A DNA stretch of 64,000 bases from Vallicoccus soli. Its GTDB lineage: Bacteria; Actinomycetota; Actinomycetes; Motilibacterales; Motilibacteraceae. The notes beneath the pieces were generated by a model. It saw nothing but the letters and a program-made list of their open reading frames with translations, was not told the origin of the DNA and did no database searches. Location of the stretch: the NCBI RefSeq assembly GCF_003594885.1, contig NZ_QZEZ01000003.1, forward strand, positions 62,001-126,000, given 5' to 3'. Position numbers and translations under genes: made by a program. Shown piece by piece: positions 5,453 through 58,303 of this stretch; within the stretch, counting starts at the first letter, position 1, and each line of letters begins with the position of its first letter.

Positions 5453-5458
5453 TACTGT
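5453..5458 (+). promoter_or_regulatory. -10 hexamer TACTGT before the recQ-like gene
   Basis: TACTGT ends seven bases before the GTG at 5466, which supports a leaderless mRNA. The next upstream GTG (5457) overlaps the hexamer itself and is therefore an unlikely start. Confidence 0.55.
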
Positions 5459-5465
5459 GCTCGAC

Positions 5466-7622
5466 GTGCCTGCCGACCCCGCCCCGCCCGCCCCGACCGC
5501 CGACCCCGTCGCCCTGCGCGCGCGGGCCGACGAGCTGCTCCGCGCCCTCGCCGGGCCGGCGGCGCGCCTGCGCGAGGACCAGTGGACGGCGATCGAGGCG
5601 CTGGCGGTGCACCGCCGCCGCGCGCTCGTCGTGCAGCGCACCGGCTGGGGCAAGTCCGCGGTCTACTTCCTCGCCACGGCCCTGCTGCGCGAGCAGGGCG
5701 CGGGCCCCACGGTCATCGTGTCGCCGCTGCTCGCGCTCATGCGCAACCAGGTCGAGGCGGCCTCGCGCGCCGGCATCCGGGCCCGCACCATCAACTCGGC
5801 CAACGTCGAGGAGTGGGACGCGGTGTCCGCGGAGGTGCGCGCGGGCGAGGTCGACGTGCTGCTCGTCAGCCCCGAGCGCCTCAACTCCCCCGGCTTCCGC
5901 GACGACGTGCTGCCGCGCCTCGCCGCCGAGACCGGCCTCGTCGTCGTCGACGAGGCGCACTGCATCAGCGACTGGGGCCACGACTTCCGCCCCGACTACC
6001 GGCGGCTGCGCGACCTGCTCACCGACCTGCGCCCGGGGGTCCCGGTGCTCGCGACGACGGCCACCGCCAACGCCCGCGTGACCGCCGACGTCGCCGAGCA
6101 GCTCGAGGCCGGCGGCGACGGCTCGGCGCCGCTCGTGCTGCGCGGCACGCTCGACCGGCCCAGCCTGCACCTCGGGGTCCTGGCCCTGCCGACGGCGGCC
6201 CACCGGCTGGCCTGGCTGTCCGAGCACCTCGACGCCCTGCCGGGCTCCGGGATCGTCTACGCGCTCACGGTCGCCCAGGCCGAGGACGCCGCGGCCCACC
6301 TGCGCGAGCGCGGGCACGTCGTCGCGTCGTACACGGGACGCACCGAGGCCGCCGAGCGCGCCCAGGCCGAGCAGGACCTCGTCGCCAACCGGGTCAAGGC
6401 GCTCGTGGCCACGTCCGCGCTCGGGATGGGGTTCGACAAGCCCGACCTCGGCTTCGTCGTGCACCTCGGCGCGCCGCAGTCGCCCATCGCCTACTACCAG
6501 CAGGTCGGCCGCGCCGGCCGCGGCGTCGACCGGGCGGTGGCCCTGCTCCTGCCGGGGCACGAGGACCAGGACATCTGGCGCTACTTCGCCTCCCTCGCCT
6601 TCCCGCCGGAGCCGGTCGTGCAGCACGCGCTCGACGCGCTCGCCGAGGCCGGCCGGCCGGTGTCGACGGCGGCGCTGGAGACCCGCGTCGAGCTCGGGCG
6701 CACGCGCCTGGAGCAGATGCTCAAGGTGCTCGACGTCGAGGGCGCCGTGCAGCGGGTCCGCGGCGGCTGGGTCGCGACGGGCCGGCCCTGGGCCTACGAC
6801 GCCGAGCGGTACGCCCGGGTCGCCGAGGCCCGCTCCCGGGAGCAGCGGGCGATGCTCGACTACCTCGTCGCGCCCGGCTGCCGCATGGCCTTCCTGCGCG
6901 ACCAGCTCGACGACGAGGGCGTGCAGCCCTGCGGCCGCTGCGACCGGTGCACGGCCCCCTCCTGGCCCACCAGCGTCGACGACGCCGCGGTCGGCGCCGC
7001 GGTCGAGGGCACGCGCCGCCCCGGCGTCGAGGTGGCGCCGCGCGCGATGTGGCCGACGGCCATGGCCTCGCTCGGCGTCGACCTCTCCGGGCGCATCCCG
7101 GCGGCCGAGCAGGCCGCCCCCGGGCGCGCGCTGGGCCGGCTCAGCGACATCGGCTGGGGACCGCGGCTGCGCGAGGTCGTGGGCCCGGCGGCCGGCGACG
7201 GCCCGCTCCCCGACGACCTCTTCGACGGCCTGGTGCAGGTGCTGCGGCACTGGGGCTGGGACGAGCGCCCGCAGGCGGTCGCCTGGGTCGGGTCCGCGCG
7301 GCGCCCCGGGCTGGTGCGCGCCACCGCCGAGCGCCTCGCCGCGGTCGGCCGGCTCGCCCTGCTCGGCTCCGTCCGGCGCTCCGGCGGGCCCGACGTCCCC
7401 GAGCAGGTCGCCCGGGTGAACTCCGCCCAGCGGGTCCGCGCCCTGCACGGCGCCCTGCGCCCCGACCCCGACCTCGCCGCCGCCCTGCCCGGGCTGCGCG
7501 GCCCCCTGCTCCTCGTCGACGACGTCGTCGGCACCGGCTGGACCATGGCCGTCGCCGCCCGCGAGCTGCGCCGCGCCGGCGCCCCCGCCGTCCTGCCGCT
7601 GGCCCTGGCCCTCGACGCCTGA
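5466..7622 (+). CDS. RecQ-family ATP-dependent DNA helicase with C-terminal phosphoribosyltransferase-like domain
   Basis: 718 residues. Helicase motifs in order are the Walker A loop TGWGKSAV near 58, the DEAH box with the RecQ signature [18 protein letters not shown] near 161, TTATAN (motif III) near 197, and QVGRAGR (motif VI) near 345. A four-cysteine zinc region follows (CRMAF near 471, CGRCDRC near 488) with winged-helix-like sequence around it. The last 60 residues contain [15 protein letters not shown] near 680, the PRPP-binding loop of type I phosphoribosyltransferases. RecQ proteins unwind 3'-tailed and branched DNA in repair. The extra PRT-like tail is not part of E. coli RecQ, and its function here is unknown. 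It ends just before a block of tandem repeats. Confidence 0.9.
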
Positions 7623-7670
7623 GGCGCGGGGCCGGCGGCTCACGGGCGTTCGGGGGCTCCGAGGGTCCGG

Positions 7671-7749
7671 CGGCTCGGGGGGTTCGAGGGCTCGGGGGGT
7701 TCGAGGGCTCGGGGGGTTCGAGGGCTCGGGGGGTTCGACGGCTCGGGGG
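7671..7749. repeat. 17-bp tandem repeat, about 4.5 copies
   Basis: The unit GGGCTCGGGGGGTTCGA repeats with an exact 17-bp period at 7671, 7688, 7705, 7722 and partly at 7739. The strand is strongly G-biased. It lies between the recQ stop and the 22-bp array at 7780. GGTTCGA resembles a tRNA T-arm, but no tRNA fold is present. Confidence 0.85.
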
Positions 7750-7779
7750 TCCGGGGGCTCGGGCGGCACCGCACGCCTC

Positions 7780-7865
7780 ACCCCGCCGCGATCATGCACC
7801 TCGCCGGCGGCGATCATGCACTCCTCCGGCGCCGATCATGCACTCCTCCGGCGCCGATCATGCAG
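7780..7865. repeat. 22-bp repeat array A (CGATCATGC core), four copies
   Basis: CGATCATGCA occurs at 7789, 7811, 7833 and 7855, exactly 22 bases apart. Each copy is preceded by a GC block of the form CCGGCGSC. The first copy is slightly degenerate on its left. The array sits between the convergent recQ and NUDIX-NYN genes. The same unit recurs at 8849-8914 (inverted), 31741-31776, 37793-37897 and 58264-58303. There are no unique spacers, so this is not a CRISPR array. Confidence 0.85.
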
Positions 7866-7908
7866 CCACCCGACGCCGCTCCTGCCTCGCGAGCGGGGGT
7901 CCGCGAAG

Positions 7909-8763
7909 TCAGGCCGCGTCGACGAGGTCCAGCAGCCACCGGGGTCCGGCGGCCACCGCCCCGTCGGGCAGCCGGTCGCGCAGGCCCCGGTCAGCGGTCA
8001 CCACGACGAGCCCGCCCGCACTCCCGGCGACCACGGCCCCGGCGACGGTGTCGTCGCCGCTGCCCGGCGCCCGGAGCACCTCGACGCCGGCCACGTCCTC
8101 CACCGCTGCGGCCCGGCCCTCCACGACGACGACGACCTCCCCGACCCGTACCAGCGCGCCCGCCGGCAGGCGCACGACGCGACCGGGCCGCACCGCGGGC
8201 GACAGCGCGCGGAGCCGCTCGAGCAGGCGGGTCGTCGCGCCCGCACGGTCCCTCCACCAGCCGTCCGGGCGGCTGCCGACGACGTTGGCCGCGTCGACGA
8301 CGAGCCGTACGGCCGGGGCCCGCAGCACGGGCCAGGAGGCCGCGAAGCCCGGGTGCAGGGGCAGGGCGTCCACGTCGGCCTCCGCGACCCAGCGCAGCTC
8401 CACGCTCTCCCGCTGCAGCACGGTGGGCAGGAGGGCGTCGGCGTCGGCCAGCACCGTCGTGTAGGTCCAGCCGCCGTGGTCGACGACGTGCTCCTCGCCG
8501 GTGCGCACCCGCTCCAGCGGCAGGGAGGCCTCCTCGGCGGCCTCGCGCAGCGCGGCGTCCGCCATCGTCTCGTGGCTGTCGCGCGCACCGCCGGGGATGC
8601 CCCAGGTGCCGCCCTCGTGGGTCCACTCGGCGCGGTGCTGCAGCAGGACGCGGACGTCACCCTCGGTACCGGGGGCCCGGAGCAGCAGTCCGGCCGCCCC
8701 GTTGCGCCCCCAGTGCCGGTGCCCCTGGGCGCACTGCACCCAGCCGTCGCCGTCGCCCTGCAC
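7909..8763 (-). CDS. NUDIX hydrolase fused to a NYN/PIN-like domain
   Basis: 284 residues. The N-terminus WVQCAQGHRHWGRNGAAGLL is followed by a Nudix box GGARDSHETMADAALREAAE, matching GX5EX7REUXEE with the usual final Gly region altered to EEASLP. The C-terminal third begins VRLVVDAANVVGSRPDGWW, then GSGDDTVAG and VVVTADRGLRDRL. This pattern of separated aspartates is typical of NYN/PIN-like nuclease folds. Nudix domains cleave nucleoside diphosphates linked to a moiety, and NYN domains are RNase-like. A joint RNA-processing role is inference. Start: GTG 8763, chosen because the frame upstream runs through repeat DNA and family members start just before the CxxGHxHWG motif. Repeat arrays in opposite orientation flank the gene. 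Confidence 0.75.
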   Translation of the reverse strand: MQGDGDGWVQCAQGHRHWGRNGAAGLLLRAPGTEGDVRVLLQHRAEWTHEGGTWGIPGGARDSHETMADAALREAAEEASLPLERVRTGEEHVVDHGGWTYTTVLADADALLPTVLQRESVELRWVAEADVDALPLHPGFAASWPVLRAPAVRLVVDAANVVGSRPDGWWRDRAGATTRLLERLRALSPAVRPGRVVRLPAGALVRVGEVVVVVEGRAAAVEDVAGVEVLRAPGSGDDTVAGAVVAGSAGGLVVVTADRGLRDRLPDGAVAAGPRWLLDLVDAA

Positions 8764-8848: not shown

Positions 8849-8914
8849 GCATGATCGCCGCCGGGCGGCTGCATGATCACCGCCGGAGAGCTGCATGATC
8901 ACGGCCGGGTCGTC
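8849..8914. repeat. 22-bp repeat array B (inverted orientation), three copies
   Basis: GCATGATC occurs at 8849, 8871 and 8893, again exactly 22 bases apart. It reads as the reverse complement of array A. It lies between the whiB stop and the NUDIX-NYN start, both on the minus strand. Arrays A and B therefore form a large inverted repeat around the NUDIX-NYN gene. Confidence 0.85.
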
Positions 8915-16400: not shown

Positions 16401-16423
16401 CGTCCCAGCCGATCGAGGAGACG

Positions 16424-16617
16424 CAGGAGAGACCCGGCCCGTCCGGCGGTGGCCACCGCCGGAGGACCGGGCGCCGAAGGAGCAACCTCCCCGGGAAACT
16501 CTCAGGCACCCAGGACTGCGTCGCCGAGGCGACTCTGGAGAGAGCGGCACGGGCCGCTCACCGAAGGGCGAAGCCGGCCCGCGCCGGCGAAGGCCTCAGG
16601 TGCCAGGACAGAGCGGG
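16424..16617 (+). ncRNA. Tandem glycine riboswitch (two gcvT-type aptamers)
   Basis: Aptamer 1 (about 16424-16519) shows GGAGAG, then GCGCCGAAGGAGCAA, then GGGAAACTCTCAGGCACC and AGGAC. Aptamer 2 (about 16531-16617) repeats the order: CTGGAGAGAGC, CACCGAAGGGCGAAGCC, GGCGAAGGCCTCAGGTGCC and AGGACAGAG. These are the conserved blocks of the glycine riboswitch, including the CTCTCAGG-type segment and the AGGAC ending, with the short linker typical of cooperative tandem aptamers. Glycine binding usually turns on downstream genes. Here the downstream gene is an M20 amidohydrolase, not gcvT/gcvP or a transporter. Confidence 0.88.
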
Positions 16618-31730: not shown

Positions 31731-31740
31731 CCCGCCGCGG

Positions 31741-31776
31741 CGATCGTGCGCGCATGGTGCCACGCGCGCATGATCG
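31741..31776. repeat. 22-bp-family repeat as an inverted pair (locus C), possible terminator
   Basis: CGATCGTGCGCG (31741-31752) and CGCGCATGATCG (31765-31776) are reverse complements except one position that allows G-U pairing. The core CGATCATGC matches arrays A, B and D. It lies between the convergent pgm and hypothetical genes. Confidence 0.75.
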
Positions 31777-31832
31777 CGGCCGAGGGCGCGCGCTCGCGGC
31801 CGCCTCCCGCGAGGCCGCGCCCGGCGCGGCGG

Positions 31833-37792: not shown

Positions 37793-37897
37793 GCATGATC
37801 GCGGCCGGGCCGGCGCCGGCGGCGACCCTGCGCCTCCCCGGCGGCGATCATGCGCCTCCCCGGCGGCGATCATGCGCCTCCCCGGCGGTGACCCTGC
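37793..37897. repeat. 22-bp repeat array D, four forward units plus one inverted copy
   Basis: CGATCATGCGC occurs at 37845 and 37867. Diverged copies with GACCCTGC in place of GATCATGC occur at 37823 and 37889. All four are exactly 22 bases apart. A copy in the opposite orientation (GCATGATCGCGGCCGGG) begins at 37793 and can pair with the forward units. The array overlaps the last codons and stop of the RNase Z frame. Confidence 0.85.
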
Positions 37898-42802: not shown

Positions 42803-42853
42803 CGCCCTCCGGCGCAGCACGGCCCGAGCGCAAGGTCCGGCAGCGCGGCCCGG

Positions 42854-42900
42854 GCGCGCGGTCCGGGCGCGCGGTCCGGGCGCGCGGTCCGGGCGCGTGG
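42854..42900. repeat. 13-bp tandem repeat, about 3.5 copies
   Basis: GCGCGCGGTCCGG repeats at 42854, 42867 and 42880, with a partial copy at 42893. It lies between the aldo/keto reductase and PAC2 genes. The gap of about 200 bases shows no other feature. Confidence 0.8.
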
Positions 42901-58263: not shown

Positions 58264-58303
58264 GCTGCATGACCGCGGCGGGAGGACCCCGCCGCGATCA
58301 TGC
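58264..58303. repeat. 22-bp-family inverted pair forming a hairpin (locus E)
   Basis: GCATGACCGCGGCGGG (58267-58282) and CCCGCCGCGATCATGC (58288-58303) are 16-base arms with one mismatch around AGGAC. The right arm contains the family core CGATCATGC. It lies between the convergent epimerase and OYE genes, consistent with a bidirectional terminator. Confidence 0.85.

What the first reader, a model, noticed from the sequence alone, without database searches (positions are those of the whole stretch)
37793..37897. A dispersed 22-bp repeat family (core CGATCATGC) at five gene ends, always with 22-bp period or as hairpins
The unit, consensus roughly n6-CCGGCGGCGATCATGC, occurs at 7780-7865, 8849-8914, 31741-31776, 37793-37897 and 58264-58303. 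At three loci copies are spaced exactly 22 bases apart, and at the others they form inverted pairs. All are in intergenic DNA at 3' ends of genes. A conserved period and core over five unrelated loci is more than compositional bias. It could be a terminator element, a nucleoid-protein site or a miniature repeat. I know of no named family with this consensus.
Basis: seen in the sequence. Interest (0 to 1): 0.8.

Follow-up and report, generated by a model that had tools for sequence, protein, structure and literature searches.

The report
Short repeats at ends of genes
This genome carries over a hundred copies of a short DNA repeat, mostly where two genes end facing each other, and unrelated-looking repeats in distant relatives share its ten-letter core, so it is probably one branch of an undescribed group of non-coding repeats.

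Summary
CGATCATGC occurs 10 times in the window (0.13 expected), and GCGATCATGC 134 times in the 4.04 Mb genome against 0 for the reversed control. There are 92 tandem pairs, nearly all exactly 22 bp apart. In 864 kb of unselected sequence the core is 45 times denser between genes than inside them. It lies in 14% of convergent gaps, 3% of co-directional gaps and 0.7% of divergent gaps.

The 22-bp period belongs to this lineage. Other genera, and five other families of the class, carry repeats with the same core (YGATCATGCR) but different arms, in tandem (23, 34 or 44 bp) or as inverted pairs. Copy number is patchy: 333 in one species, 1 in a congener.

Tandem arrays do not fold, no terminator-type U tract is present, and paired arms mostly do not covary. 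The Y1 transposase that mobilises REP repeats is absent from this genome and from 15 of 16 panel genomes.

Best reading: a REP-like, non-coding interspersed repeat family whose monomer carries a recognition core for an unidentified factor, accumulating at 3' gene ends because promoters and coding sequence do not tolerate it. A protein-binding insulator or terminator site is the main rival. New variant of a known kind.

The parts
7781..7885 (+). Tandem array of four 22-bp units with exact cores at 7789, 7811, 7833, 7855, in the convergent gap between a RecQ-type helicase gene (5457-7622 +) and a NUDIX gene (7909-8763 -)
8849..8914 (-). Tandem array of three 22-bp units (exact cores 8849, 8871, 8893), co-directional gap, 5' of the NUDIX gene; faces the 7781-7885 array across that gene
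31740..31777 (.). Inverted pair (+ core with one mismatch at 31740, exact - core at 31768) that folds into a strong hairpin on both strands; convergent gap between a phosphomannomutase-type gene and a small minus-strand ORF
37793..37897 (.). One - copy (37793) facing a + array of four units (37823 degenerate, 37845, 37867, 37889 degenerate); co-directional gap, overlapping the end of a metallo-beta-lactamase-fold ORF whose TGA stop lies in the 37867 unit
58264..58303 (.). Inverted pair (- core with one mismatch at 58267, exact + core at 58294), strongest hairpin of the five; convergent gap between an epimerase gene and a flavin oxidoreductase gene

Best explanation
A short, non-coding, interspersed repeat family with REP-like behaviour. 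The building block is a monomer of about 22 bp: a conserved core (C/T)GATCATGC(A/G) followed by a lineage-specific arm; in this genome the arm is spacer + CCGGC + two bases. Monomers occur alone, as direct tandem arrays (period = monomer length), and as inverted pairs. SHOWN: the sequence family, the copy number, the enrichment at 3' gene ends, the shared core across families of the class, and the sister-species differences in copy number. INFERRED: the core is the recognition sequence of a trans-acting factor, unidentified here, needed for the copies to multiply or persist. Copies arise by dispersal to new gaps and then by local tandem duplication. Selection removes copies from coding sequence and promoters, leaving convergent and co-directional 3' gaps. 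Inverted pairs may secondarily end transcription, and units sometimes supply a gene's stop codon.
For: Copy number and control. Unselected 864 kb: 55 cores in 74.9 kb noncoding against 13 in 789 kb coding; gaps with a core: convergent 13/90, co-directional 8/249, divergent 1/142; Fisher p = 2.4e-5 convergent vs divergent, 4.6e-4 convergent vs co-directional. The same direction of bias in two other genera. Same core with different arms in other families of the class, reversed control near zero; tandem array of the same core with a 23-bp period in another family. Patchy bursts of TGATCATGCA: 414 in G033, 333 in G004 against 1 in its congener G002, 36 against 5 in another congeneric pair, about 2-20 in most genomes. 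Neighbouring linkers in an array are 82% identical, linkers of different arrays 65%, consistent with local duplication plus dispersal. Paired arms are mostly no more alike within an element than between elements (five of seven sets), so the monomer, not the hairpin, is the unit. Duplicated composites with 7-unit arrays lie at the ends of two contigs.
Against: No mobilising enzyme was found: Y1_Tnp (PF01797) is absent from this genome and from 15 of 16 panel genomes. No empty site or target-site duplication could be shown; only 5 orthologues were found between the sampled G002 and G004 stretches. The core is conserved at 0.91-1.00 per position while spacers fall to 0.46-0.77 in the same arrays, which points to continuing constraint rather than simple decay. 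A few gene ends carry copies in two different genera, which would also fit a maintained function.
Confidence: 0.55

Rival explanations
1. Arrays of binding sites for a DNA-binding protein that separates converging transcription units (roadblock or insulator) or organises the nucleoid. Core and CCGGC are the contacts, the spacers are free, and tandem copies add affinity.
For: Bipartite conservation: GATCATGC 0.91-1.00 and CCGGC 0.89-0.97 per position against spacers of 0.46-0.77 in units chosen without regard to their own core. The same core sits in unrelated contexts, orientations and lineages. Convergent gaps are preferred. Some gene ends carry copies in two genera with different arms.
Against: Copy number differs 333 to 1 between congeners. 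Only 14% of convergent gaps have a copy. Spacing and relative orientation are free (22, 34, 44 bp; direct or inverted). Arrays in convergent gaps are not nearer to the gene on their own strand. No candidate protein was identified.
Confidence: 0.22
2. Bidirectional transcription terminators: the inverted pairs form hairpins in both converging transcripts.
For: Three of the five window loci fold well below shuffles on both strands (z about -2.0 to -5.5). Convergent gaps dominate. A relative's element is a near-perfect stem of about 35 bp.
Against: The two direct-repeat loci do not fold (z -0.8 to +1.0). No U-tract terminator at any locus. Arms do not covary in most sets: 82 one-sided against 22 paired changes. 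C-over-G skew after stops is the same with and without the element. A terminator does not need a conserved core sequence.
Confidence: 0.15
3. Uptake-type signal spread by molecular drive, as DNA uptake sequences are in Neisseria and Pasteurellaceae.
For: Short conserved core, frequent inverted pairs at gene ends, lineage-specific variants.
Against: At most 134-414 exact cores per genome, far fewer than classic uptake sequences (about 1,500-2,000, from memory). Head-to-tail arrays of fixed period are not expected from uptake. Competence was not examined.
Confidence: 0.04

Closest known systems
REP / BIME / REPIN elements with RAYT (TnpA-REP)
   Same: Short intergenic repeats with a conserved end tag and a lineage-variable arm, single or paired in opposite orientation, in patchy bursts, mostly between convergent and unidirectional genes (PMC3733652 for REPs).
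   Different: The tag is YGATCATGCR, not GTAG or CGTC. The monomer is not itself a palindrome. Head-to-tail arrays are common. No Y1 transposase in 15 of 16 panel genomes.
ERIC, BOX and RUP-type interspersed palindromes
   Same: Noncoding, intergenic, palindromic in some lineages (the 70-80 bp element of genus g2).
   Different: Different sequence, shorter monomer, tandem form (from knowledge of these families; not searched by sequence).
VNTR / MIRU-type tandem repeats
   Same: Array sizes range from 2 to 19 units and neighbouring units are homogenised.
   Different: One family dispersed over many loci with a core shared across the class; units are 22 bp (MIRU units are longer, from memory).
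Intrinsic bidirectional terminators
   Same: Hairpins in convergent gaps.
   Different: Direct arrays do not fold, no U tract, fixed core sequence.

Membership tests
REP/REPIN-RAYT | GTAG or CGTC tag at one end of the repeat | tested here: not met
   Unit and arm consensus carry YGATCATGCR instead
REP/REPIN-RAYT | Cognate RAYT (Y1 transposase, PF01797) in the genome | tested here: not met
   Absent in G000 and in 15 of 16 panel genomes; the search works in 5 of 14 control genomes
REP/REPIN-RAYT | Intergenic, between convergent or unidirectional genes | tested here: met
   Convergent 13/90, co-directional 8/249, divergent 1/142
REP/REPIN-RAYT | Monomer folds as a small palindrome | tested here: not met
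   Direct arrays do not fold better than shuffles; hairpins arise only from two monomers
Intrinsic terminator | Stem-loop followed by a U tract | tested here: not met
   No terminator-like site at any of the five loci
Intrinsic terminator | Pairing preserved by compensatory change | tested here: inconclusive
   Within-element arm identity exceeds between-element identity clearly in G060 and marginally in G009; not in the other five sets
Any Rfam RNA family | Match above the gathering score | tested here: not met
   No match at the window loci; only generic-hairpin microRNA models far below gathering in relatives
DNA uptake sequence | Preferential uptake by competent cells | not testable with these tools
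   Needs a transformation assay
Miniature mobile element | Occupied and empty sites at orthologous positions | tested here: inconclusive
   Too few orthologous gaps: G004/G000 2 shared, 2 only G004; G003/G000 3 shared, 5 only G003, 3 only G000; G002/G004 too few orthologues

The most novel reading that the evidence does not exclude
Across this bacterial class a conserved but unknown factor recognises (T/C)GATCATGC(A/G). It drives the spread or upkeep of interspersed repeats whose arms turn over between genera while the core stays fixed: a RAYT-independent counterpart of REP elements, with its own machinery.
Probability: 0.3. Interest if true: 0.8.

Novelty: new variant of a known kind. Interest (0 to 1): 0.55.

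Why it matters
Short interspersed repeats are well studied in proteobacteria, where a RAYT transposase explains their spread. Here a comparable group with a constant core and interchangeable arms runs through many families of a class with no such enzyme in nearly all genomes examined. That makes a direct question testable: which protein recognises the core. The 19-20 unit array and its relatives are also ready-made strain markers, and the repeats sit at contig ends in this assembly.

Tried and rejected
(1) RAYT-driven REPs: PF01797 absent. (2) Frame-independent stop-codon cassette (the minus strand of each unit carries TGA, and 22 is not a multiple of 3): rejected, because G004 same-strand spacings include 45, 57, 72 and 39. 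(3) Rho-type C-rich upstream signal: C-over-G skew after stops does not differ with and without the element. (4) Conserved hairpin: arms mostly do not covary. (5) microRNA-family matches in Rfam: structure-only matches far below gathering. (6) Phage origin: only scattered single hits in viral contigs. (8) Helical-phase requirement: spacing differs between lineages. (9) Array orientation tied to the nearest gene: no preference. (10) Literature searches for the core and for such repeats found nothing relevant in the held library.

Full report
WHAT WAS CLAIMED AND WHETHER IT IS THERE. The five loci are present as described. CGATCATGC occurs ten times in 64 kb against 0.13 expected in dinucleotide shuffles. 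In the 4.04 Mb genome the 10-mer GCGATCATGC occurs 134 times and its reversed control never. Two GATCATGC cores with 12-16 bases between them (20-24 bp apart) occur 92 times, control 0, nearly all exactly 22 bp apart. The longest array has 19-20 units on contig C9. Two contigs, C2 and C3, end shortly after related arrays inside a duplicated composite of about 500 bp.

WHERE COPIES LIE. I called genes with a codon-usage script (90.6% of the window coding). In 864 kb chosen without regard to the repeat (800 kb of contig C1 plus the window), the core GATCATGC occurs 55 times in 74.9 kb of noncoding DNA and 13 times in 789 kb of coding DNA. It lies in 13 of 90 convergent gaps, 8 of 249 co-directional gaps and 1 of 142 divergent gaps. 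Two other genera of the family show the same direction of bias, although those stretches were mostly picked around copies. In the window, three loci are convergent and two co-directional.

ANATOMY. Two flank types share one core. Tandem units read GATCATGC-R-spacer-CCGGC-NN-Y. Single copies often read CCCCGCSGYGATCATGCGCNNRTGGCG. Among 35 units chosen only because both neighbours 22 bp away are exact, core positions are 0.91-1.00 conserved, CCGGC 0.89-0.97, and the spacers fall to 0.46-0.77. Linkers of neighbouring units are 82% identical, those of different arrays 65%. So arrays grow locally, but core and CCGGC are held more strictly than the rest. Four called genes use a TGA inside a unit as their stop codon.

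RELATIVES. No other genus in the sampled class has the 22-bp arrays. The core, however, is widespread. Inverted pairs of TGATCATGC with lineage-specific arms form clear families in genomes of f1 (two other genera), f6, f9, f30, f31 and f40, with reversed controls near zero. Examples: TGATCATGCAATCCCGCCACC in G033, TGATCATGCACGTTCGCCCC in G157, TGATCATGCACATGTGGCGAGTTGTCCACAG in G003. G033 also has a direct array of its own arm with a 23-bp period. G004 holds 346 YGATCATGCA in both direct and inverted arrangement. TGATCATGCA counts are patchy: 414 in G033, 333 in G004, 94 in G157, 1 in G002 (congener of G004), mostly about 2-20 elsewhere.

STRUCTURE. The three window loci with inverted copies fold strongly on both strands (z about -2.0 to -5.5); the two direct arrays do not (z -0.8 to +1.0). 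No locus has a U-tract terminator. In seven sets of inverted pairs from relatives, arms of one element are clearly more alike than arms of different elements only in G060, marginally in G009, with 82 one-sided changes against 22 paired. The monomer, not the hairpin, appears to be the unit.

MOBILITY OR FUNCTION. The Y1 transposase that drives REPs is missing from this genome and from 15 of 16 panel genomes. A few gene ends carry copies in two genera with different arms (L033/L204, L045/L214, L053/L187, L060/L220, L048/L221), but a reciprocal-best-hit table is too small to decide. At L048/L221 the gene between two element loci appears inverted relative to its neighbours between the two genomes; with 42% identity this could also be replacement. 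Four genes in this genome sit between inward-facing arrays.

CONCLUSION. The repeat is real and is this lineage's version of a class-wide group. I favour a REP-like interspersed repeat whose core is recognised by an unidentified factor (0.55), then a protein-binding insulator site (0.22), then a bidirectional terminator (0.15). Limits: one gene caller of my own, anonymous relatives, no transcript data, one mis-specified collection scan, and a literature library that lacks most subscription papers. The REP comparison uses PMC3733652.

Noticed in passing
7628-7763: A second, unrelated tandem array (17/34-bp period, GGGGGTTCGAGGGCTCG, about 7 copies) lies in the same convergent gap as the 22-bp array.
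   Followed up: no
42820-42897: A 26-bp tandem repeat (CGGCCCGGGCGCGCGGTCCGGGCGCG, 3 copies) found by Tandem Repeats Finder.
   Followed up: no
L048 3049-4089 and L221 2017-2934: An AbiEi-like gene with repeat copies on both sides in two genera appears inverted relative to its neighbours between the genomes, possibly by recombination between inverted arrays.
   Followed up: partly
L056 and L062, last ~500 bases: Contigs C2 and C3 end in two copies of one composite repeat, each with a 7-unit array and the same terminal sequence; a likely assembly break point.
   Followed up: partly
L303 4365-4769: A 19-unit (or longer) nearly homogeneous 22-bp array downstream of a gene; a candidate strain-typing locus.
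   Followed up: no
16414-16528: Glycine riboswitch (Rfam RF00504).
   Followed up: no
window 7909-8763; L048 3049-4089; L314 4468-5163; L315 3988-4557: In four cases a single minus-strand gene is flanked by arrays that face it from both sides (NUDIX, AbiEi-like and two others of unknown function).
   Followed up: partly
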